Positions 20,864-31,635 of a DNA stretch of 64,000 bases are shown in pieces; the first letter of the stretch is position 1, and each line of letters starts with the position of its first letter. Made by a program: the position numbers and the translations under genes. Below the pieces are notes generated by a model. The model ran no database searches. It was not told where the DNA came from and was given only the letters and a program-made list of their open reading frames with translations. The DNA is from Ignavibacteriae bacterium HGW-Ignavibacteriae-2 (GTDB lineage: Bacteria > Bacteroidota > Ignavibacteria > Ignavibacteriales > Melioribacteraceae): NCBI GenBank assembly GCA_002839805.1, contig PGYT01000006.1, forward strand, positions 1 through 64,000, read 5' to 3'.

Positions 20864-20892
20864 TTGACAAAAAGATCTGATATTCATATGTT
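20864..20892 (+). promoter_or_regulatory. Candidate sigma-70-like promoter of the regulator gene
   Basis: TTGACA (20864-20869), 17-bp spacer, TATGTT (20887-20892). The palindromic site begins four bases downstream, so a protein bound there would block this promoter. Confidence 0.5.
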
Positions 20893-20895
20893 TTA

Positions 20896-20915
20896 AACGT
20901 TTGAAAAATTTCAAA
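20896..20915 (+). promoter_or_regulatory. Palindromic operator copy 1 (before the GbsR-type regulator)
   Basis: Core of two inverted 7-base halves TTTGAAA and TTTCAAA with a 2-base centre (20900-20915). The left half is extended to AACGTTTGAAA as in copy 2, while the right half decays after TTTCAAA. It lies between the promoter and the start codon at 20931, which suggests autoregulation. Confidence 0.65.
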
Positions 20916-20930
20916 TATAAAAAACAGAAT

Positions 20931-21416
20931 ATGGATAAAGCAGAAAAGTTAAAAGAAGATTTTATAATGAACTTTGGCTGGGCCTACAAAGCATTTGGTC
21001 TGAGCAAATTGATGGGCCACGTTGTGGCGCTGCTGCTTTTTTCACCCAAACCTCTTTCGCTCGATGAAATAACAGAATCCCTTAAAAGAAGCAAAGGTCC
21101 CGTAAGCCAAATAACCCGCAGACTTAGGGATAAAAATTTAATAAGAAGAGTTTGGCAACCGACTAGTCGAAAAGACTATTACGAAATTCAACCCGATATT
21201 TTTGAAAACGCTTTCAGAAATAATCTCGAAATGGTTAGAAATAACTACAAATTAGCGCAGAAATTTAGAACTCAAATTAAAGACCAAAATGTGCAGGAAG
21301 CTGAAATTCTGTCCGCCCGTTTGGAAGAAATGCAAAGTTTCTACGAATTGATGGACAAAAAGTACAGGGAATTTCTGGACGAATGGGATGACGAACGCGC
21401 TAAGTTACTAGGTTAA
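20931..21416 (+). CDS. GbsR/MarR-type winged-helix transcriptional regulator
   Basis: 161 residues. The DNA-binding winged helix covers about 25-95: LLFSPKPLSLDEITESLKRS, KGPVSQITRRLRDKNLIRRV and a wing with RKDYYEI. The C-terminal part is a long helical region (RNNLEMVRNNYKLAQKF onward) that should form the dimer. The pattern of starting with GWAYKAFGLSKLMGHVVALL fits the GbsR group. Start is ATG at 20931; the open frame goes back to TTG 20901 but that lies inside the operator. The same palindrome is found before this gene and before the downstream operon, so it very likely controls both. The ligand is unknown. Confidence 0.83.
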   Translation: MDKAEKLKEDFIMNFGWAYKAFGLSKLMGHVVALLLFSPKPLSLDEITESLKRSKGPVSQITRRLRDKNLIRRVWQPTSRKDYYEIQPDIFENAFRNNLEMVRNNYKLAQKFRTQIKDQNVQEAEILSARLEEMQSFYELMDKKYREFLDEWDDERAKLLG

Positions 21417-21453
21417 TTAAAAGATTTAACGAACTATATATTCCTATAGACTG

Positions 21454-21477
21454 AACGTTTGAAAAATTTCAAACGTT
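21454..21477 (+). promoter_or_regulatory. Palindromic operator copy 2 (before the catabolic operon)
   Basis: Perfect inverted repeat with 11-base arms (AACGTTTGAAA and its complement) and a 2-base centre, 23 bases before the SDR start codon. It contains the entire core of copy 1, so both are read as sites for the regulator encoded between them. Confidence 0.75.
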
Positions 21478-21500: not shown

Positions 21501-22244
21501 ATGGAAAGACTTAAAAACAAAATCGCGGTAATTACAGGCGGATCGCAGGGAATTGGCAGAGCCACAGTTGAAAAATTTGTGAATGAAGGCTGCAAAGTGG
21601 CTATATGGGATATCGATGAAGTAAGTGGAGAAACATTATCCAATGATTTGAACGCCAAAGGATTCGATACCTTCTTTCAAAAAGTAAATGTCGCGGATAT
21701 GGATAACGTGCAAGCTGCGGTAAAGTCCACATTGGCAAAATACGGCACAATAGATATCCTTGTGAATAATGCGGGAATTACAAAAGACGCCACTCTTAAA
21801 AAAATGACGCCCGAACAATGGCAGAAAGTAATTGACGTAAACTTAACAGGCGTGTTCAATTGTACAAGTTCAATTTCAACTGTTATGCTTGAAAAAGGAA
21901 CTGGGCGAATATTAAACGCGTCATCGGTAGTTGGGCTTTATGGAAATTTCGGACAAACAAATTATGTGGCCACAAAAGCTGGTGTTATTGGGATGACTAA
22001 AGTTTGGGCCAGAGAACTCGGCAGAAAAGGAATTACCGTTAATGCCGTAGCTCCGGGATTTATTGCTACCGAAATGGTTAAAGCTATGCCCGAAAATGTT
22101 ATAAAAATGATGGAAGATAAAACTCCGGTTGGACGATTAGGTAAACCTGAAGATATCGCCAACGCCTATTTGTTTTTATCGAGCGACGAAGCATCATTTA
22201 TAAACGGTGCCGTATTAAGTGTAGATGGTGGAATTGTAATTTAA
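21501..22244 (+). CDS. FabG/PhaB-like 3-oxoacyl reductase (SDR family)
   Basis: 247 residues, classical SDR: TGGSQGIGR (about 12-20), NNAGIT (about 88-93), catalytic serine S141/S142 in NASSVVG, Y155 and K159 in YVATK, then VAPGFIATEM. It looks like a 3-oxoacyl-ACP or acetoacetyl-CoA reductase, and could act as a 3-hydroxyacyl(-CoA) dehydrogenase. Start ATG 21501 is preceded by AGAGGAC; the frame is open to TTG 21459 inside the operator and that start is rejected. First gene of the operon under operator 2; the next start is 10 bases on. In this setting I think it interconverts hydroxy and keto groups on the imported acid, not housekeeping fatty-acid synthesis, but that is inferred. Confidence 0.83.
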   Translation: MERLKNKIAVITGGSQGIGRATVEKFVNEGCKVAIWDIDEVSGETLSNDLNAKGFDTFFQKVNVADMDNVQAAVKSTLAKYGTIDILVNNAGITKDATLKKMTPEQWQKVIDVNLTGVFNCTSSISTVMLEKGTGRILNASSVVGLYGNFGQTNYVATKAGVIGMTKVWARELGRKGITVNAVAPGFIATEMVKAMPENVIKMMEDKTPVGRLGKPEDIANAYLFLSSDEASFINGAVLSVDGGIVI

Positions 22245-22254
22245 CAGGAAAATT

Positions 22255-23244
22255 ATGAGAAATGCGGTAATACACTCCAGCGGATTTTACGTCCCTGAAA
22301 AAATAATAAGCAATAAATATTTTGACGATTTACTCGGCGAAGAAGTAAGTCCATGGTTGGAGAAACATGTTCAAATATACGAAAGACGATGGTGCGCCGA
22401 TAACGAATCGACGGCGGATCTAGCGAAGGAAGCAATTAAAAACGCCATGCAAAACGGTGGGGTTAAACCCGAAGAAATCGATCTGCTTATTATAGCAACG
22501 GACACACCGGAGTTTATCTCTCCTTCAACATCCTCAAAAGTACAATTTGAGCTGGGACTTATAAACGCAGGCACATTCGATGTAAATACTGCTTGCGCGG
22601 GTTTTGTTACGGCGCTGGATATGGCGTCCAAATATATACGTGATGACGAACAATATAAGACTGTAGCCGTAGTGGGCGCGTACGCGATGAGTAAATATTT
22701 AAATATGTTAGATAAAAAAACGGTTAACCTATTTGCCGACGGCGCCGGAGCTTTTATACTTAAAGCCGAAGAAAACAGCGGCAGAGGTTTTCTGGCGAGC
22801 AGACTTATTACCAAAGGTCAATATTATGATTATATGGGAATATTTGCCGGAGGAACTTTTAAACCTATTTCTGCTGAATTGGTTGATACGGTTGAACCAA
22901 AACTTCAGATACGTAAAAAATTCCCCCCTGAATTAAATCCCGAAATATGGTCGGACATAGCGAAAAATTTATCTGATAGGACTAATATACCTTTGAACGA
23001 AGTTGATATGTACTTCCTTACGCAGATAAATATTAATAGCATTTTTGAAACTATGGAAAAACTAAACCAGCCGAAAGAGAAAGCTCAAACAAGTATGCAT
23101 TATTACGGTTACACCGGTTCGGCATGTATACCAATCGCTTTTTGCGATGCTTTAGAAAAAGGAAAAATTAAAAGGGGCGACAACATATTTTTCATTGGAT
23201 CCGGCGGCGGTTTAGCTTTTGCCGGAACCGCATTCAAATATTAA
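22255..23244 (+). CDS. KAS III-like protein lacking the catalytic His and Asn
   Basis: 329 residues with the two-half thiolase-like fold of FabH. The nucleophile is kept: C114 in NTACAGF. Against E. coli FabH the catalytic His of PHQAN aligns with T256 (LTQIN), and the Asn of HGNTSAAS aligns with Y286 (YGYTGSAC). The C-terminal GSGGGLAFAG loop is kept. A Cys without His/Asn cannot work as a normal decarboxylating ketosynthase; it may be an acyl-transfer, hydrolase-like or partner subunit of the second KAS III-like protein in this operon. It lies 10 bases after the SDR and 9 before the transporter gene. Family certain, role unknown. Confidence 0.8.
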   Translation: MRNAVIHSSGFYVPEKIISNKYFDDLLGEEVSPWLEKHVQIYERRWCADNESTADLAKEAIKNAMQNGGVKPEEIDLLIIATDTPEFISPSTSSKVQFELGLINAGTFDVNTACAGFVTALDMASKYIRDDEQYKTVAVVGAYAMSKYLNMLDKKTVNLFADGAGAFILKAEENSGRGFLASRLITKGQYYDYMGIFAGGTFKPISAELVDTVEPKLQIRKKFPPELNPEIWSDIAKNLSDRTNIPLNEVDMYFLTQININSIFETMEKLNQPKEKAQTSMHYYGYTGSACIPIAFCDALEKGKIKRGDNIFFIGSGGGLAFAGTAFKY

Positions 23245-23253
23245 TGGCAAACT

Positions 23254-24804
23254 ATGGCAACAACTGAACAAGTTATTGGAACCTGGATTTTAATAACAAT
23301 TTACTCATCCATAATAATTTATTTTGTGGTTAGAGGAGCATTAAAGATTAAAAACATTTCCGATTACGCGGTAGGGAACATAAATTTTTCACCCTCCGCA
23401 GTAGGACTTTCTCTGGCCGCTACTATGACAAGCGCAGCAACGTTTGTAATAAATCCCGGACTTATAGCCAATTTCGGTCTTAGCGCTTTTATAGCTTATG
23501 GATTAGTATTTCCTCTGGGAGCGGTTTTGTCCTTAATTCTGCTCACTAAAAGTTTTAGGAAATACGGACAAACTGTAAAAGCACTCTCGTTGGCTCAATG
23601 GATTGGGAACAGATATAAAAATGAGAGATACGCCTTTTTTATGGCTGTACTGTCTCTGCTCCTAATTACATTCATAGTTTTGATAATTGTGGCCTTGACT
23701 AAAGTGCTCTCAAAAGCGCTTAACTTGGACGAGTTATACATATTATTCGGAATTGTAATATTTGTTTTCGGATATATGATGTTCGGCGGCGCTAATTCCA
23801 TGGTATACACAAATACCGTTCAGGGAATTGTAATGCTTATCGTAGCGTTTATTCTGCTTGGTTCTGGATATGAATATTTTCGTGATGGCATTTCGGGATT
23901 TTTTAACGAATTGGCAGCAATAGCTCCAAGTTTAACTGACACTACTGTCCCTTCAAGCCCATTATTCAGAGATTATTTCGAGATAATTATTTGTCAGTTT
24001 ATTGTTGGTGTGGCTGTTGTATGTCAGCCGCATATAATTACAAAATCGCTGCTGCTTAAAAAAGAAAGCGATGTTAACAGGTATTTACTTGTTGGTGTAA
24101 TAGTTGAAATAATATTTTTCTTAGTTGTTTTCGCCGGATTTTACGCGAGGTTAACTTTCCCCGATTTATCAATTGAAGGAGTAGCATTAAAAAACGACGG
24201 AATTATTCCCGCTTATGTTATAAAAATATTCTCCGATGGAATTGTCTCCGTTTTGGTAGGATTGCTAGTAATACTGGGACTTATTTCAGCGGGTATGTCG
24301 ACTCTGGAAGGATTGATTCAATCATTATCTACTACAATAACTTCAGATATAATTAAACCGTTATTAAAAAACAGAATTACATCCGATAAAACTTTAATAA
24401 CCATTAATAAGATAACTATAGCGCTGTTAGCAGTTGTTTCAATAATTATTTCTTACGATCAATTGATAAACCCGAAATTATCAGTTGCAATTCTGGCGCA
24501 GAACGGTGTGTACGCTTATTTCTCAGCGGCGTTTATTCCTATATTGTTCGGAATATTTTTTAAAGATGTGGATATAAAAGCGCCGTTGTTCGCTTCAATT
24601 ACGGCATTGGTAGTTCATTTCGGAATATACTACGGACTTCCAGCGCTCGTGGAAACTTTCGGAATATCTTTCGGATACTTTACTAAATATTTGGTTGGCG
24701 GAATCAGAAATCCAGCCATTTCTTCAGCTACGGCAATTATCGTTTCCACTTTAGTCGGAACAACTATACACTTTTTTACTAAAAAAAATAGTTTAACAAA
24801 ATGA
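23254..24804 (+). CDS. Sodium:solute symporter (SSS family)
   Basis: 516 residues with about 13 hydrophobic helices covering most of the length. SSS features are visible: SDYAVG after helix 1, SLAATMTSAATFVINPG in helix 2 region (a known unwound, sodium- and substrate-binding helix in this fold), and LISAGMSTLEGLIQSLSTT in the middle of the second repeat. Inner-membrane, sodium-driven uptake of a small organic solute, probably a carboxylate because a CoA ligase follows. Its stop overlaps the ligase start by 4 bases (ATGA at 24801-24804), so the two are coupled. Substrate is not predictable. Confidence 0.88.
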   Translation: MATTEQVIGTWILITIYSSIIIYFVVRGALKIKNISDYAVGNINFSPSAVGLSLAATMTSAATFVINPGLIANFGLSAFIAYGLVFPLGAVLSLILLTKSFRKYGQTVKALSLAQWIGNRYKNERYAFFMAVLSLLLITFIVLIIVALTKVLSKALNLDELYILFGIVIFVFGYMMFGGANSMVYTNTVQGIVMLIVAFILLGSGYEYFRDGISGFFNELAAIAPSLTDTTVPSSPLFRDYFEIIICQFIVGVAVVCQPHIITKSLLLKKESDVNRYLLVGVIVEIIFFLVVFAGFYARLTFPDLSIEGVALKNDGIIPAYVIKIFSDGIVSVLVGLLVILGLISAGMSTLEGLIQSLSTTITSDIIKPLLKNRITSDKTLITINKITIALLAVVSIIISYDQLINPKLSVAILAQNGVYAYFSAAFIPILFGIFFKDVDIKAPLFASITALVVHFGIYYGLPALVETFGISFGYFTKYLVGGIRNPAISSATAIIVSTLVGTTIHFFTKKNSLTK

Positions 24805-26315
24805 ATCAATTTGACTGGATCGCCAAATGGGCGCTGTATAATGAGGAAGCAAAAGCTGTTAAAGAATTTGAAACAGGAAAAGAACTTACATATGGGCAGC
24901 TCAATAGAATAGCTAATCGTGTATCCTCGGTTTTCTTAAATGAATATAAACTGAAGAAAGGTGACAGGGTAGCAGTTCTCGCGGAAAATTGTTCAGAGTA
25001 TATTATTCTTTTTAGCGTTATGCAAAAAACCGGACTTGTTCTTGTGCCTTTAAATTTTAGACTTACATCTCCGGAATTAAATTATATTCTGGAAAACGCG
25101 GAAGCTTCACTGGTTATAACAGAAACTAAATTTCTTGAAAAAATTACAGCGACAGATGCTTACAACAGTGTAAAAAATAAATTGATCTTGAAAGATTTTG
25201 AAATTATTTGTGCGCGCGGTAATGATAACCACGCACCCGATTTTAAATCAGCCCGGCTAAATGAAAACGATCCGCTTTTTATTTTATATACATCCGGCAC
25301 AACCGCTTTTCCTAAAGGAGCAATCTACACTCATAAAATGTTATTCTGGAACAGTATTAACACTGAAATCCGTTTGGACATTACCTCGAGCGATATTTCT
25401 CTTGATGTAGCGCCTCCATTTCATACAGGTTTCTGGAATGTTCTCTTAACTCCGTTTATTCATCACGGGGCATATACAATACTGATGAAAAATTTTGACG
25501 CGGAAAATGTATTAAACCTAATTGAAAAAGAGAAACTGACTATATGGTGGGCGGTTCCTACTATGCTTAAGATGATATCCGAAACTTCGCTTTTCAAACA
25601 AACTGATATATCGAATCTAAGATATATGGTTGTCGGCGGCGAAGCTATGCCTATTCCACTTATCAAAAAATGGCATTCTAAAAATGTGCCTATTAGACAG
25701 GGATACGGACTTACAGAGGTTGGACCTAATATTACATCACTGCCGGAAAAAGACGCCATAACCAAACAAGGTTCTATCGGTACTCCTAATTTTTATGTTG
25801 AAACAAAAATTGTTGACGATAAAGGGAATGAAATTACTGGAAGCGGTGGAGGAGAACTATTATTAAAAGGACCTAATGTTACCCCGGGCTATTGGAAAAA
25901 CGATGAAGCTACTGAAAATACAATTGTTGACGGATGGTTTCATACGGGTGATGTAGTAAGCAGGGATGATGACGGTTATTTCTATGTTATAGACAGAATA
26001 AAAAACATGTATATCTCCGGCGGCGAAAATGTTTATCCAGCAGAAGTGGAACACCTGATACGTAAACTGCCCGGAATTAACGATTTGATTATTATCGGTG
26101 TCCCTGATGAAAAATGGGGGGAAGCAGGTAAAGCGTTTATTGTTAAAGAAAAAGATATACAAATAAACGAAAAAGATATTCTCGATTATTGCAGGGCAAA
26201 TCTGGCAAAATATAAAATTCCTAAATACGTTGAATTTATAGATGAATTACCGAAAAATGATGCCGGTAAAGTTGACAGAAAAAAACTTAAACAACAAGAT
26301 TCGGATATTAGCTGA
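24801..26315 (+). CDS. AMP-forming acyl-CoA ligase
   Basis: 504 residues, ANL superfamily. AMP-binding motif YTSGTTAFPKGA (about 166-177), YGLTEVGPN (A5), WFHTGDV (A7), and the C-terminal catalytic lysine region PKNDAGKVDRKKL. Activates a carboxylic acid to its CoA thioester through an acyl-AMP. Translationally coupled to the transporter upstream and overlapping the next gene by 1 base, so it most likely activates the imported substrate. Overall it looks like medium-chain fatty acid or aromatic acid ligases; chain preference cannot be told. Confidence 0.9.
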   Translation: MNQFDWIAKWALYNEEAKAVKEFETGKELTYGQLNRIANRVSSVFLNEYKLKKGDRVAVLAENCSEYIILFSVMQKTGLVLVPLNFRLTSPELNYILENAEASLVITETKFLEKITATDAYNSVKNKLILKDFEIICARGNDNHAPDFKSARLNENDPLFILYTSGTTAFPKGAIYTHKMLFWNSINTEIRLDITSSDISLDVAPPFHTGFWNVLLTPFIHHGAYTILMKNFDAENVLNLIEKEKLTIWWAVPTMLKMISETSLFKQTDISNLRYMVVGGEAMPIPLIKKWHSKNVPIRQGYGLTEVGPNITSLPEKDAITKQGSIGTPNFYVETKIVDDKGNEITGSGGGELLLKGPNVTPGYWKNDEATENTIVDGWFHTGDVVSRDDDGYFYVIDRIKNMYISGGENVYPAEVEHLIRKLPGINDLIIIGVPDEKWGEAGKAFIVKEKDIQINEKDILDYCRANLAKYKIPKYVEFIDELPKNDAGKVDRKKLKQQDSDIS

Positions 26316-27337
26316 TGGCTTCAAACGTGAATGTGGGTATAGTGGGTACAGGAATTTATCTTCCCGATAGAAAGATTACGGCGGATGAAATAGCTGCTCA
26401 AACGAAAGGCGTGTGGGCGGCTGAAGCTGTTAAAGAAAAATTGGGGATAATTGAAAAAACTCTGCCCGGAGATAAAGACGGTACTCAGGAAATGGGCGTA
26501 TATGCCGCTAAAACCGCTCTTGATAAAACAGGAGTTGATGCTAAGGAGATAGATTTAATTTTATGCGTTGGAGAGGAATGGAAAGAATATCCGTTAACTA
26601 CCTCAGGCATATATATACAGGAAAAAATCGGCGCACGAAATGCCTGGGCAATAGATGTTCAACAAAGATGCTGTACAACAATTTCTGCCATGAAAATGGC
26701 GAAAGATATGATGATAGCCGACGATGACATTAATACAGTTCTAATTTGCGGAGGTTACCGTAACAGCGATTTTGTAGATTATGCTGATCCAAACATGTCC
26801 ATGATGTTTAATTTAGCTGCGGGCGGCGGCGCATTGATTCTGAAGAAAAACTATAACAAAAATTTACTTTTAGGTTCGCATATAATCAGCGATGGTTCCA
26901 TGGCACGCGACGCCGGTGTGATTTTCGGTGGAACGGAAAATCCGATTACTTGCGAAAATGCAGGGAAAGCTTATAAATCGCTCACACTTATGAATCCTGA
27001 TCATATGAAAAACCGCCTGAATGAAGTATCGATGGACAATTGGATGAGATGTATAGATAAGGCATTTGAAAAAAGCGGCGTTGATAAAAAAGAGCTTGGA
27101 TATTTGGCAGTGCTGCATTTTAAACAGTCCATGTATCAACATATGCTCGGTTTACTCGGGCTTAACGGGGATCAATCGATTTATCTTAATAATATTGGTC
27201 ACGTTGGACAAATAGATCAGATAATTTCACTTGAACTTGGACTGCGGCAGGAAAAAATTAAAGATGGAACAATAATAGCAATGATAGCCGCCGGGATAGG
27301 TTACGCCTGGGCTGCTAACGTAATTAGATGGGGATAA
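26315..27337 (+). CDS. Second KAS III-like protein, catalytic Cys and His present
   Basis: 340 residues. The thiolase-like fold motifs include GIVGTGIYLPDRKI at the N-terminus and AAGIGYAWAANVIRWG at the C-terminus. The nucleophile aligns with C119, followed directly by C120 (QQRCCTT). H268 in VLHFKQ takes the place of the FabH His. The Asn loop is replaced by NNIGHVGQID (292-301), with Asn and an extra His. It overlaps the ligase by 1 base. It is clearly not housekeeping FabH, and is also unlike its partner at 22255. It might carry out acyl-CoA condensation or, in a catabolic setting, thiolytic or hydrolytic carbon-carbon cleavage; this is inference. Confidence 0.8.
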   Translation: MASNVNVGIVGTGIYLPDRKITADEIAAQTKGVWAAEAVKEKLGIIEKTLPGDKDGTQEMGVYAAKTALDKTGVDAKEIDLILCVGEEWKEYPLTTSGIYIQEKIGARNAWAIDVQQRCCTTISAMKMAKDMMIADDDINTVLICGGYRNSDFVDYADPNMSMMFNLAAGGGALILKKNYNKNLLLGSHIISDGSMARDAGVIFGGTENPITCENAGKAYKSLTLMNPDHMKNRLNEVSMDNWMRCIDKAFEKSGVDKKELGYLAVLHFKQSMYQHMLGLLGLNGDQSIYLNNIGHVGQIDQIISLELGLRQEKIKDGTIIAMIAAGIGYAWAANVIRWG

Positions 27338-27371: not shown

Positions 27372-27869
27372 ATGAAAAAATTATTATCGCTTTTATTAAT
27401 TCTTTTACTCGCTGTTAGTTTTGCGGCTTGCAGTGATGACGACGACAACACAACCGAACCGGAAGTAAAAGTCGATGCATGGATCGGAACTTGGCTCAGC
27501 ACCGGCACGGATGTAGCACCTCTTTTATCTACATATTTCAATTATGATAGTGTGAGAGTAGAAATGAAAGAAGATAATACGATAACTCTTAATACTCATA
27601 TTAAAAATGCATCCTGGTCGACACTTCCCGGTGTTTATTCTGTGACAAAATCTACGAGTGGTGATGTTCATACAATAAAAATTAATTATACAGCTTTTGA
27701 GCAGGAAGGAATTGTACAAATAATATCCGGTACACCAGATCAAATGAAGTTGGAAGTTATACAAACTGTTCCGAGTACAAGTTTTGTAGCTAGAACACCC
27801 GCAACCGGATTCGGTTCAGACGCCCAATTAGGCACATCAAATATTCAGATTTATAAAAAAATTAAATAA
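27372..27869 (+). CDS. Small outer-membrane lipoprotein of unknown function
   Basis: 165 residues. Lipoprotein signal with lipobox SFAAC (Cys20) followed by an acidic stretch SDDDD, a pattern that in Bacteroidota can mark surface-exposed lipoproteins. The rest is beta-rich (IGTWLSTGTD, DNTITLNTHIKN, VHTIKINYTAF) and suggests a small lipocalin-like barrel, but I do not recognise a family with confidence. It has a strong ribosome-binding site (AAAGGAGCACCAA) and a terminator directly after it. Probably helps bind the substrate of this locus. Confidence 0.72.
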   Translation: MKKLLSLLLILLLAVSFAACSDDDDNTTEPEVKVDAWIGTWLSTGTDVAPLLSTYFNYDSVRVEMKEDNTITLNTHIKNASWSTLPGVYSVTKSTSGDVHTIKINYTAFEQEGIVQIISGTPDQMKLEVIQTVPSTSFVARTPATGFGSDAQLGTSNIQIYKKIK

Positions 27870-27942: not shown

Positions 27943-29478
27943 ATGAAAGACTTTTTAAAAATCTGCCTCATTTCAATTTTTATATCTCTTCAAATTAATG
28001 CCCAGATGACCGATAATTTCGAAGAAGATAGGGTTAAAGAAGAGAAAAAGGAATTTAAATTTATCGGCTATTATTTTATGAGATCCGAAGTCTCAAACAT
28101 GTACCCGACAAATGAGTTTCTTAAAGGTCAGGTTGTAGGGCGTCTGTTCGGGGGTAACTCTACAAGAACCGGTCAGGATTCCAGATTCACAGAACAAAGA
28201 TTTATACCTATAATAGCATACACACCGAGGCTATTCGACGGCTGGGCCACAATGAGAATGTCGTTCGAACTGGACTGGACCTGGGGCGACGCTAATTACG
28301 GAGCCGGTGGAAACTTCGGCGGAGCTTTCGGCGCGGACTTTGTAAATATGCAGACACAGAATTTGTTTATAGAATTCAGACCGCAAAAAAATCTTTTTGT
28401 AAACGCTGGTTTAACCCGATTGTTCGATAATATAAGTGTGCCGGCTTATACCCCTACGGAGGATTTGGTAAACACCGGATACAGACTAGCAATTTGGGGT
28501 TCGGACGCTACCGGTATCGCCGGACATTATTTTCTGAAAGATCAAAGATTTAAGCTGGGAGCTTACCAGCTTTATGAAAATAATGTTAATCAGAGTGACG
28601 ACGTTGTTCTTTTTGAAGCCGATTACGAATATGATTTCGATATTAAAAATTCGGCGGGATTAACGCTTTATTACTTAAAAGACAGGGGCAACGGGGAAGG
28701 GGGAGTCTCTATTCTTGGTCAGGGTCTTAATTCGGGTTTAAGCAATTACAGCGGCGTATTTAATTTTAATTTTGGGAATAATCCTTATACTGCGGATATA
28801 GTATGGCTTGGTTCTCACTTTCACGGTGATCCGCTTTTAAGGCAAGGCCGTTTCGGTTACAGCGGTTTTGTTATAAGTAACTTCGGACAAGCGAAAACTA
28901 AACTTCAGTCTGTTGATATTTTCGGTATGGCGGCTAATCTTAGGCTGGCATATAAATACGGCGCCAATAGGAATGATTTTGTGGCATTCGACGGAATTTT
29001 TACAACCGGCGATGACAATAACATAAGCGACGGAAAATACAGCGGAGTGCTTACGGGAAATAACTGGACCGCGCCCGGAGCCGTGTTTTTTAGTCACGGA
29101 TTATATTTGTTGTTGCCCCACGGAAATGTAGTTAACCGTTTTGTAGCCGCTGTTATAGACATTCAAAATGTCGGGTACGGTCTTGCCGCAGGCTCTTTGA
29201 CGGGATCCTACGATATTGTTCCAAATAAGTTTAAAATAAAATCCGCTTTGGGTCTTGGTTATTCTCCTGTTACTCCTACAGGCGGCGGAAATCAATTAGG
29301 CGCTGAAATTAATCTTAATCTGCTTTACAAGTTAAGAGTCTACATGGATTTGGAACTACACGCCGCGTATATGAAACTTGGCGATTTCTTTGATTCACGT
29401 GACGTTAACGGAGGAATTACAGGCAGACCCGAAGATCCGTGGGTTTTATTCGCTTCACTTAAATGGATAATGTTCTAG
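27943..29478 (+). CDS. Outer-membrane beta-barrel protein
   Basis: 511 residues. Signal peptide 1-20 (LISIFISLQINAQ). The mature part consists of alternating amphipathic strands (TPRLFDGWATMRMSFELDW, FDIKNSAGLTLYYLKD, YKLRVYMDLELHAAYMKL) and ends in a C-terminal Phe (LKWIMF), the usual barrel-assembly signal. Rich in Gly, Asn and aromatics. It resembles porin-like or alginate-export-like barrels without a precise match. Followed by the lipoprotein hydrolase after 9 bases. Likely the outer-membrane passage for the substrate of this locus. Barrel nature is well supported; specificity is unknown. Confidence 0.78.
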   Translation: MKDFLKICLISIFISLQINAQMTDNFEEDRVKEEKKEFKFIGYYFMRSEVSNMYPTNEFLKGQVVGRLFGGNSTRTGQDSRFTEQRFIPIIAYTPRLFDGWATMRMSFELDWTWGDANYGAGGNFGGAFGADFVNMQTQNLFIEFRPQKNLFVNAGLTRLFDNISVPAYTPTEDLVNTGYRLAIWGSDATGIAGHYFLKDQRFKLGAYQLYENNVNQSDDVVLFEADYEYDFDIKNSAGLTLYYLKDRGNGEGGVSILGQGLNSGLSNYSGVFNFNFGNNPYTADIVWLGSHFHGDPLLRQGRFGYSGFVISNFGQAKTKLQSVDIFGMAANLRLAYKYGANRNDFVAFDGIFTTGDDNNISDGKYSGVLTGNNWTAPGAVFFSHGLYLLLPHGNVVNRFVAAVIDIQNVGYGLAAGSLTGSYDIVPNKFKIKSALGLGYSPVTPTGGGNQLGAEINLNLLYKLRVYMDLELHAAYMKLGDFFDSRDVNGGITGRPEDPWVLFASLKWIMF

Positions 29479-29487
29479 GAGGATGAA

Positions 29488-30438
29488 ATGAAAAAAATAA
29501 ATTATTTAATTTTAGCAGTGGTTGTTATGGCTGTCGCTGGTTGCTCCACCTCGGAATATTATACTCTTCCTGCAAAGGAATTCAGTGAAGTGGATTATAA
29601 ATTTCCGGTAAAATTTGAACAAGTAAAAAATATTAATATAGCGTATATTGATGAAGGCAAAGGTGAAAATGTATTGCTGTTGATACACGGACTCGGTACA
29701 AACGCTAAAAGCTGGCTGAAAAATATTCCCGCCTTATCCGAAAATTTCAGGGTTATTGCAGTGGATTTACCCGGGTATGGCAAATCTGATAAAAAAAATT
29801 ATAAATACTCGATGTCATTTTATGGCGATGTTCTTTCAGAATTTTTGACTAATTTGAAAATAAATAAAGCTACATTCGTCGGTCATTCTATGGGCGGTCA
29901 AATTTCTATGGTTACCGCTCTTAATCATCCCGACAAAGTAGATAAACTTGTTCTTATTTCGCCTGCTGGATTTGAGAGGTTTACTGAAGGTGAAGGCGAT
30001 TGGATGAAAGCCGCTTTTACAATTGAGTTGGTAAAAGAGACCAATACAAGAAACATAGACGTTAATTTGAGTAGTAACTTTTATGATACTCCAGAAGATG
30101 CTTCGTTTTTTGTTACGGATAGAATTCAAATAAAAGGCGCAAAAGATTTTGAAGATTATTGTTACGCTGTAACACGAAACGTTACAGGTATGATAGATGA
30201 ACCGGTTTGGTCAAGATTAACGGAAATTAAAAATAAAACATTAATACTGTTCGGTGAGAACGACGGATTGATACCTAATTCTTATCTGCACGGCGGATTT
30301 ACATGTGACATCGCAAAAATTGGTGAATCCCAAATACCGGATAATAAAAGTGTAATTATTCCAAAATGCGGGCACATGGCCCAATTTGAAAAAGCTGATA
30401 TTGTTAATAAAGAGATAATTGACTTTATAAATGAGTAA
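29488..30438 (+). CDS. Lipoprotein alpha/beta-hydrolase
   Basis: 316 residues. Lipobox VAGC with Cys19, so it is membrane anchored outside the cytoplasm. Alpha/beta-hydrolase fold with oxyanion motif LIHGLG, nucleophile elbow GHSMGG (S134), acid D259 (GENDG) and H296 (CGHMAQFE). Expected to cleave an ester, or possibly a carbon-carbon bond in a diketone as in MhpC-like enzymes. Ribosome-binding site AGGAGG is strong; the thiolase gene starts 9 bases later. Location outside the cytoplasm suggests it frees the acid that the symporter then imports. Confidence 0.87.
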   Translation: MKKINYLILAVVVMAVAGCSTSEYYTLPAKEFSEVDYKFPVKFEQVKNINIAYIDEGKGENVLLLIHGLGTNAKSWLKNIPALSENFRVIAVDLPGYGKSDKKNYKYSMSFYGDVLSEFLTNLKINKATFVGHSMGGQISMVTALNHPDKVDKLVLISPAGFERFTEGEGDWMKAAFTIELVKETNTRNIDVNLSSNFYDTPEDASFFVTDRIQIKGAKDFEDYCYAVTRNVTGMIDEPVWSRLTEIKNKTLILFGENDGLIPNSYLHGGFTCDIAKIGESQIPDNKSVIIPKCGHMAQFEKADIVNKEIIDFINE

Positions 30439-30447
30439 GGAGTATTT

Positions 30448-31635
30448 ATGGCTGAGTTAAAAGAAGTATATATAATAGATGCGGTGCGCACACCCATAGG
30501 ATCATTTATGGGGGCGTTAAGTTCGGTGCCGGCGCCTAAACTCGGCAGCATTGCTATAAAGGCACTTGTCGATAGAAATAATCTTAAACCCGATTCAGTT
30601 AGTGAAGTAATTATGGGTAACGTTATACAAGCGGGTGAAAAACAAGCGCCTGCTCGTCAAGCGGCTTTATATGCGGGTTTAGACCAAGCTACCGAATGTA
30701 TGACTGTTAACAAAGTTTGCGGTTCCGGATTAAAGACAGTTATGCTTGGCGCTCAGGCAATTATGACAGGCGATGCCGATGTCGTTATCGCCGGAGGAAT
30801 GGAGAACATGTCACAAATTCCTTTTTTAATTCATAACGCAAGAGCGGGATTTAAAATGGGCGATCAGAAAATTGCCGATGCGATGCTTGGCGACGGACTG
30901 ATTGACGCTTATGACAATGTACACATGGGCACTTTCGCCGAATTATGCGCCAGAGAAAACAACATTACGCGAGAAGACCAGGATAATTTTGCGGAAGAAA
31001 GTTACAGACGCGCATTAAAAGCTATCGCTGATAAAACATTCGATCCGGAAATTATTCCTGTTGAAATAGCCGGCAGAAAAGGTGAGGTAACACTTGTTGC
31101 TGAGGACGAAGAACCGGGTAAAGTTAATTTCGATAAAATGAAAACTTTAAAACCTGTATTCGAAAAAGATGGAACTGTAACCGCGGCTAACGCATCCAGT
31201 ATTAATGACGGTGCAGCAGCAGTGCTGCTTATGAGCAAAGAAAAAGCCGAGGAACTGGGACTTAAACCTATCGCAAAAATTGTAGCTCAGGCCGCCGCTT
31301 CAAAAGATCCCAAATGGTTTACAACTGCGCCTGTGGACGCGATAAACAAAGTGTTAAATAAAGCCGGTTTAACAAAAGATCAAATTGACCTTTTCGAAAT
31401 TAATGAGGCGTTCGCAGTGGTTTCGGTTACTGTTAATAGACACCTTGGTCTGGATCCGGCAAAAGTTAATATTCACGGTGGAGCGGTTGCCATTGGACAT
31501 CCTATCGGAGCAAGCGGCGCGCGAATACTTACGACTTTACTACACGCGATGAAAAGAAATGATGCCCGTTACGGACTGGCGTCATTATGCATAGGCGGCG
31601 GTGAAGCTGTTGCTCTTGTTGTTGAAAAAGTTTAA
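30448..31635 (+). CDS. Thiolase (acetyl-CoA C-acyltransferase)
   Basis: 395 residues, full thiolase with C91 (NKVCGSG), H351 (AIGHPIGASG) and C381 (LCIGGG). N-terminus IIDAVRTPIGSFMGAL is typical of acetoacetyl-CoA/3-ketoacyl-CoA thiolases. Cytoplasmic; cleaves 3-ketoacyl-CoA with CoA, or runs in the reverse direction. As last gene of the cluster it would give acetyl-CoA from the keto-acyl-CoA made by ligase and SDR. Chain-length preference is not clear; length and residues fit the short-chain type. Confidence 0.92.
   Translation: MAELKEVYIIDAVRTPIGSFMGALSSVPAPKLGSIAIKALVDRNNLKPDSVSEVIMGNVIQAGEKQAPARQAALYAGLDQATECMTVNKVCGSGLKTVMLGAQAIMTGDADVVIAGGMENMSQIPFLIHNARAGFKMGDQKIADAMLGDGLIDAYDNVHMGTFAELCARENNITREDQDNFAEESYRRALKAIADKTFDPEIIPVEIAGRKGEVTLVAEDEEPGKVNFDKMKTLKPVFEKDGTVTAANASSINDGAAAVLLMSKEKAEELGLKPIAKIVAQAAASKDPKWFTTAPVDAINKVLNKAGLTKDQIDLFEINEAFAVVSVTVNRHLGLDPAKVNIHGGAVAIGHPIGASGARILTTLLHAMKRNDARYGLASLCIGGGEAVALVVEKV

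What the first reader, a model, noticed from the sequence alone, without database searches (positions are those of the whole stretch)
20896..21477. Same palindrome flanks the GbsR-type regulator gene: probable operator pair
Copy 2 (21454-21477) is a perfect inverted repeat with 11-base arms AACGTTTGAAA and a 2-base centre. Copy 1 (20896-20915) keeps the complete left arm and the 7-base core of the right arm. One lies just after a TTGACA-N17-TATGTT promoter of the regulator, the other 23 bases before the SDR gene. I saw no third copy elsewhere in the window. This points to autoregulation plus control of the downstream operon.
Basis: seen in the sequence. Interest (0 to 1): 0.6.

Follow-up and report, generated by a model that had tools for sequence, protein, structure and literature searches.

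The report
Repressor's two conserved DNA landing sites
A small regulator gene in an uncultured Ignavibacteria-type bacterium is flanked by two copies of a mirror-image DNA sequence that related bacteria keep in the same places, so its protein very probably binds both to switch off itself and the degradation-type operon next door.

Summary
A perfect 24-bp palindrome (21454-21477) and a partial copy (20896-20919) flank a GbsR/MarR-type regulator gene; nowhere else in the 4.16-Mb genome matches the 22-base site within 3 mismatches. Among 49 related loci (regulators about 50-75% identical) a site lies just after the regulator, usually before the SDR gene, in 45 (at least one, L102, looks false) and directly before the regulator in 33. 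Where a thiolase gene precedes the regulator, the first site sits in front of the thiolase (10 of 10 readable cases). Within the family, sites track the regulator: 19 of 23 genomes with it, 2 of 52 without (p=6e-12). Corrections: site 1 is not just a decayed copy, since it carries outer half-sites and overlaps the -10; site 2 has no recognisable promoter and looks like a lineage-specific gain. Best reading: a dimeric repressor occludes promoter P1 (autoregulation) and blocks entry into the SDR operon at site 2, by roadblock or on a weak promoter. Binding, repression and ligand are untested. New regulon of a known kind; moderate interest.

The parts
20864..20892 (+). Promoter P1 of the regulator unit, TTGACA-N17-TATGTT
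   Evidence: TTGAC upstream of site 1 in 24 of 33 loci, -10-like TAAGTT conserved at -9..-4
20896..20919 (.). Operator 1 core (24-bp palindrome, 3 mismatches); with outer half-sites it spans 20890-20925
20931..21416 (+). GbsR/MarR-type regulator, 161 aa
21454..21477 (.). Operator 2, perfect 24-bp palindrome
   Evidence: site present in 45 of 49 loci
21501..22244 (+). SDR oxidoreductase (FabG-like), first gene behind operator 2
   Evidence: follows the regulator in 20 of 20 long loci
22255..23244 (+). KASIII-like enzyme 1
23254..24804 (+). Sodium:solute symporter (SSF)
24801..26315 (+). AMP-dependent acyl-CoA ligase
26315..27337 (+). KASIII-like enzyme 2 (PRK06840 type, over cut-off)
27372..27869 (+). 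Small lipoprotein-like gene
   Evidence: weak, lipoprotein signal only; conserved in the operon
27943..29478 (+). Porin-like outer-membrane protein
   Evidence: Weak Pfam match to Alginate_exp below cut-off; conserved in the operon
29488..30438 (+). Alpha/beta hydrolase with lipoprotein-type signal (my reading of the N-terminus)
30448..31635 (+). Acetyl-CoA acetyltransferase-type thiolase, last gene of the putative operon

Best explanation
The palindromes are the operators of the GbsR/MarR-type protein encoded between them. A homodimer binds AACGTTT-N10-AAACGTT, with further contacts to outer GTTTT/AAAAC elements 9 bp further out. At operator 1 it covers the -10 and start of promoter P1 and so represses its own transcription unit (autoregulation). 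At operator 2 it stops expression of the SDR-KASIII-symporter-ligase-KASIII-lipoprotein-porin-hydrolase-thiolase operon, either as a roadblock to transcription from P1 or by covering a weak promoter next to the site. An effector, guessed to be the imported acid or its CoA ester, releases it. Shown here: the sites, their uniqueness, their conservation and position across lineages, their co-occurrence with the regulator. Inferred: binding, repression, roadblock, effector.
For: Only two sites in the genome. Site 2 in 45 of 49 loci, site 1 next to the regulator in 33 of 49. In 10 of 10 readable loci with a thiolase before the regulator, site 1 lies 16-39 nt before the thiolase, i.e. at the head of the unit. 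Sites in 19 of 23 family genomes with the regulator against 2 of 52 without. A -10 and TTGAC in fixed register to site 1. Regulator and KASIII-1 together in 25 of 27 genomes having either. GbsR-type fold. B. subtilis GbsR uses A/T-rich inverted repeats downstream of the start site, by inferred roadblock, and is autoregulated (PMC7396694, abstract and passages).
Against: No binding or expression data. Site 2 has no recognisable promoter, and terminator-like hairpins precede it in 9 of 45 loci, which does not sit well with a pure roadblock there. Four of 23 regulator genomes have no site at <=1 mismatch. Four of 49 loci lack site 2, and three of four loci of one family (f13) seem to lack it. Kapaibacteria-type loci with 50-55% identical regulators show no such site.
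Confidence: 0.8

Rival explanations
1. The palindromes act as RNA: hairpins in the 5' leaders (attenuator, stability element or terminator), unrelated to the protein.
For: A perfect 24-base dyad in the leader would fold; most stable predicted hairpin -11.8 kcal/mol. Both copies lie in probable leaders.
Against: The dyad is not kept as base pairs: positions 8/17 are complementary in only 22 of 45 (site 2) and 13 of 33 (site 1), 2/23 in 21 of 45 and 15 of 33, without compensating changes. Median folding energy is only -3.6 (site 2) and -1.4 kcal/mol (site 1). No Rfam match up to E 1. Sites vanish where the regulator is absent.
Confidence: 0.04
2. The sites belong to this regulator but it is an activator of the operon.
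For: Operator 2 lacks a recognisable promoter, as might be expected if transcription depended on an activator.
Against: Site 1 lies on and just behind the -10 in fixed geometry, where bound protein normally blocks polymerase; in distant relatives the single site lies between TTGAC and a -10-like hexamer (my reading). Characterised GbsR, OpcR and OpuAR are repressors (PMC7396694, PMC6207618, passages).
Confidence: 0.07
3. The palindromes are sites of another DNA-binding protein, and the regulator is only a neighbour.
For: No binding data; sites at <=1 mismatch also occur in 2 of 52 genomes without the regulator.
Against: In all 19 regulator genomes with a site, every listed site lies at the regulator locus; a separate regulator with several targets would leave sites elsewhere. 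Site 1 moves with the head of the regulator's unit.
Confidence: 0.06

Closest known systems
GbsR of Bacillus subtilis (gbsAB, opuB; PMC7396694, abstract and passages read)
   Same: GbsR/MarR family; A/T-rich inverted-repeat operators downstream of the promoter's -10; autoregulation; roadblock inferred.
   Different: There regulator and operon are divergent and the ligand is choline; half-sites are separated by 4 bp. Here regulator and operon run the same way, an operator lies between them, the target is an acyl/CoA-type operon, and the motif differs.
OpcR and OpuAR (PMC7396694, PMC6207618, passages read)
   Same: Same protein family, repressors; OpcR acts by covering the promoter, as proposed for operator 1.
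   Different: They control osmoprotectant transporters; that group shares an aromatic ligand cage, which was not tested here.
CudC (NCBIfam NF047500) and MJ223 (PDB 1ku9)
   Same: Best profile and best fold match of the regulator.
   Different: CudC score 49.9 against a cut-off of 218, so not that equivalog; MJ223 has 27% identity in the fold alignment and no known operator.

Membership tests
GbsR-type (MarR superfamily) regulators | Winged-helix domain plus long C-terminal dimerisation helices as in MJ223 | tested here: met
   AlphaFold2 model pLDDT 94.4; best PDB match 1ku9 by Foldseek E-value; sequence match E 3e-14
GbsR-type (MarR superfamily) regulators | Binds an inverted-repeat operator as a dimer | not testable with these tools
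   Conserved dyad sites found; binding and oligomeric state not measured
GbsR-type (MarR superfamily) regulators | Score over a curated Pfam MarR cut-off | tested here: not met
   MarR 22.5 against 24.6 bits; MarR_2 20.4 against 27; membership rests on the CudC profile, MJ223 and the fold
Choline-responsive GbsR/CudC subgroup | NF047500 cut-off (218 bits) | tested here: not met
   49.9 bits, 47 bits from the genome search
Choline-responsive GbsR/CudC subgroup | Next to betaine synthesis or uptake genes | tested here: not met
   Neighbours are SDR, KASIII, SSF symporter, acyl-CoA ligase, porin, hydrolase, thiolase; the symporter is not the ABC type of Opu systems, its substrate unknown
Choline-responsive GbsR/CudC subgroup | Cluster of aromatic residues (ligand cage) | not tested
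   No alignment to GbsR itself was made
Autoregulated repressor with operon operator | Operators at the regulator's promoter and before the target operon, conserved in relatives | tested here: met
Autoregulated repressor with operon operator | Loss of regulator raises expression of both units | not testable with these tools
   No expression data

The most novel reading that the evidence does not exclude
Operator 2 is a promoterless roadblock gained in one lineage. One promoter, P1, serves regulator and operon; the dimer at operator 2, in most species behind a T-tract at fixed distance, stops polymerase after the regulator gene, so that the cell keeps making repressor while the catabolic operon stays shut. 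Distant relatives keep the older state with one operator on the promoter.
Probability: 0.33. Interest if true: 0.5.

Novelty: new member of a known kind. Interest (0 to 1): 0.4.

Why it matters
A published survey found no consistent gene neighbourhood for the GbsR-type regulators of Bacteroidetes and archaea (PMC6207618, passages). Here one such group has a constant operon, a defined DNA site and two evolutionary states of operator layout, so that ligand, binding site and the roadblock question become directly testable. It also gives a concrete local regulon for a poorly cultured bacterial class.

Tried and rejected
Further regulon members in this genome: the looser pattern gave 12 forward hits against 13 for the control; the pattern with outer half-sites found only operator 1.

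RNA-element reading: pairs not kept, no Rfam match.

Site 1 simply weaker than site 2 everywhere: over 31 pairs site 2 scored higher in 14, equal in 8, lower in 9 (p 0.049); true for the window, not convincing across lineages.

Own promoter for operator 2: no signal over shuffles. A TnnAAT-like element at -7..-2 and the window's TATAGA at 21445-21450 remain possible (columns; my reading).

Literature: searches on GbsR with repressor and operator, Melioribacter/Ignavibacteria regulators and regulons, Melioribacter roseus with fatty acid and beta-oxidation, MarR with roadblock, GbsR family with fatty acid, Ignavibacteria with polyhydroxyalkanoate, and RegPrecise with Ignavibacter listed nothing on this regulon as far as titles and abstract starts show; the library lacks most subscription journals. 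Only PMC7396694 and PMC6207618 were opened, as abstract and passages.

Rows dropped: in the first set 7 loci that duplicate others, plus L001 and L002 (same place as L003) and the weak paralogue L029; L033 as the same region as L090. Near-identical pairs such as L104/L106 were kept, so counts are not fully independent. Three regulator-bearing genomes (G021, G023, G026) were not in the draw. An earlier count said 8 of 11 distant loci; the right count is 9 of 11.

Full report
What is there. The window lies in a Melioribacteraceae/Ignavibacteria-type genome: named records found with the regulator as query include a Melioribacteraceae bacterium (L030, 74% identity) and Ignavibacteria MAGs. Copy 2 is a perfect 24-bp palindrome at 21454-21477; copy 1 at 20896-20919 keeps the left arm and part of the right. 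Shuffles of the window expect 0.01 matches at <=3 mismatches; 2 are seen. In the 4.16-Mb genome the 22-base form occurs nowhere else at <=3 mismatches.

The protein. The gene between them (20931-21416) encodes 161 aa. It matches the GbsR-like CudC profile (E 3e-13, 49.9 bits, far below the equivalog cut-off of 218) and MJ223 (1ku9) in sequence and fold (model pLDDT 94.4). Pfam MarR models match below their cut-offs. It is the only match to the CudC profile in the genome. The segment SKGPxSQ, which I take as part of the recognition helix, is kept in all 31 aligned homologues.

Footprinting. I aligned 49 loci on the site: 31 from the family and genome contigs and 19 from the class-wide search, less one duplicate. 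Operator 2 scores >=18 of 24 in 45 of 49. The four without are L038, L039, L095 and L100; L102's hit of 18 falls in what reads as the SDR coding sequence and is probably false. Operator 1 lies within about 60 nt of the regulator start in 33 of 49. Of the other 16, eleven have a thiolase gene 12-24 nt before the regulator; in ten of these the DNA before the thiolase is available and in all ten the best site (20-22 of 24) lies 16-39 nt before the thiolase match; in L012 the contig ends inside the thiolase. Of the rest, L018 has a site 43 nt upstream, L028 is cut at the contig end, L013 shows only a partial site further up, and L038 and L039 show none. So operator 1 follows the head of the regulator's transcription unit and operator 2 stays behind the regulator.

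Information content. In site 2 the core GTTT and AAAC columns hold 1.5-2.0 bits, in site 1 1.8-2.0 except the right-hand C (0.48); most flanking columns outside the promoter, T-tract and A-tract hold 0-0.7. Both sites are followed by an A-tract ending in C at +26..+30; behind site 2 it is in register with the palindrome (1.27-2.0 bits at +26..+29) and not with the start codon. Site 1 also has the mirror element GTTTT at -6..-2, overlapping the -10. The full pattern GTTTT-N4-GTTT-N10-AAAC-N4-AAAAC averages 15.2 of 18 in site 1 and 13.9 in site 2; site 1 is its only match within 2 mismatches in this genome. So copy 1 is not merely a worn copy of copy 2. I read the outer elements as wing contacts or a second dimer; that is inference.

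Co-occurrence. Sites at <=1 mismatch are found in 19 of 23 family genomes with the regulator and in 2 of 52 without (p 5.6e-12). In those 19 all listed sites lie at the regulator locus (coordinates; some are the sites before the thiolase). The two others (G030, G065) were not followed. The four regulator genomes without such a match are G006, G046, G064 and G067; their sites are more divergent. KASIII-1 and regulator are found together in 25 of the 27 genomes that have either; the exceptions G053 and G019 have their one hit near a contig end.

Promoters. TTGAC lies upstream of site 1 in 24 of 33 loci and of site 2 in 1 of 45, and a TAAGTT-like -10 is conserved at -9..-4 of site 1. Site 2 has instead a T-tract (T5 in -17..-5 in 31 of 45, against 2 of 33 for site 1) and a promoter score no better than shuffles (7.51 against 7.70; site 1 8.64 against 7.83). 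A terminator-like hairpin with a T-run precedes site 2 in 9 of 45. The window itself lacks the T-tract. So site 2 acts either as a roadblock to P1 transcripts or on an unrecognised weak promoter; the terminators favour the second in some species.

Evolution. More distant regulators (35-43% identity; 11 loci, L130-L137 and L143-L145) sit before genes of the same kind (SDR, KASIII-1 or symporter). None of the 11 has an operator-2-like site (best 12-15 of 24 behind the regulator). The 36-bp pattern upstream of the regulator exceeds shuffles at p<=0.025 in 9 of 11 (not L132 and L143); L135 scores 18 of 18. By my reading of those sequences the site there lies between TTGAC and a -10-like hexamer, so the operator has moved relative to the promoter. 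Three Kapaibacteria-type loci (L138-L140) show no such site (p 0.86-0.98). Operator 2 therefore looks like a gain in the lineage of families f1 and f2; of four f13 loci only L096 has a convincing one.

Operon. In 20 of 20 long loci the SDR follows the regulator on the same strand. The order SDR-KASIII-symporter-ligase-lipoprotein-porin-hydrolase is kept in most; L121 and L128 depart clearly and L124 lacks the symporter and lipoprotein labels. The second KASIII is found only in L109-L113. With a thiolase in the same unit this suggests surface hydrolysis of an ester, uptake of a carboxylic acid, CoA activation, oxidation and thiolysis. Hydroxy-acid polymers or oligomers are one guess; the hydrolase's best PDB matches are meta-cleavage-type hydrolases, with PHB depolymerases much further down. 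No substrate is shown.

Known systems. B. subtilis GbsR binds A/T-rich inverted repeats downstream of the start sites of gbsAB and opuB, is inferred to act by roadblock and is autoregulated, while OpcR covers the -35 (PMC7396694, abstract and passages). The survey of GbsR proteins found no consistent neighbourhood in Bacteroidetes and archaea (PMC6207618, passages). The present locus works like a GbsR system and belongs to the GbsR/MarR family by profile relation and fold, but not to its choline subgroup by the tests made.

Verdict. Observation confirmed, interpretation supported, biochemistry untested. A new regulon of a known kind, with an interesting but unproven internal operator.

Noticed in passing
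22255-23244: KASIII-like enzyme 1 keeps the active-site Cys but has Thr in place of His and Tyr in place of Asn (by alignment to 1zow); the same in 20 of 20 homologues. It is unlikely to be an ordinary condensing enzyme.
   Followed up: partly
26315-27337: A second KASIII-like enzyme (PRK06840 type) occurs only in the close relatives (5 homologues, L109-L113) and has a Cys-Cys motif and His in place of the usual Asn (my reading).
   Followed up: partly
L138-L140: Kapaibacteria-type loci have a 51-52% identical regulator with a longer open frame upstream (235-281 aa) and no palindrome of this type: operator or regulation must differ there.
   Followed up: partly
G065:C19:81162-81184 (L079) and G030:C4:244234-244256 (L067): Site-like sequences at 1 mismatch in two genomes without the regulator; probably chance.
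   Followed up: no
20901 and 21459: The mechanical ORF list starts both regulator and SDR at TTG codons inside the two operators, giving the same MKNF start; an artefact of the repeated site, as homologues start at the later ATG (for the regulator).
   Followed up: yes
30448-31635: The thiolase gene closes the operon in close relatives but sits 12-24 nt before the regulator in 11 of 50 other loci, staying inside an operator-headed unit.
   Followed up: yes
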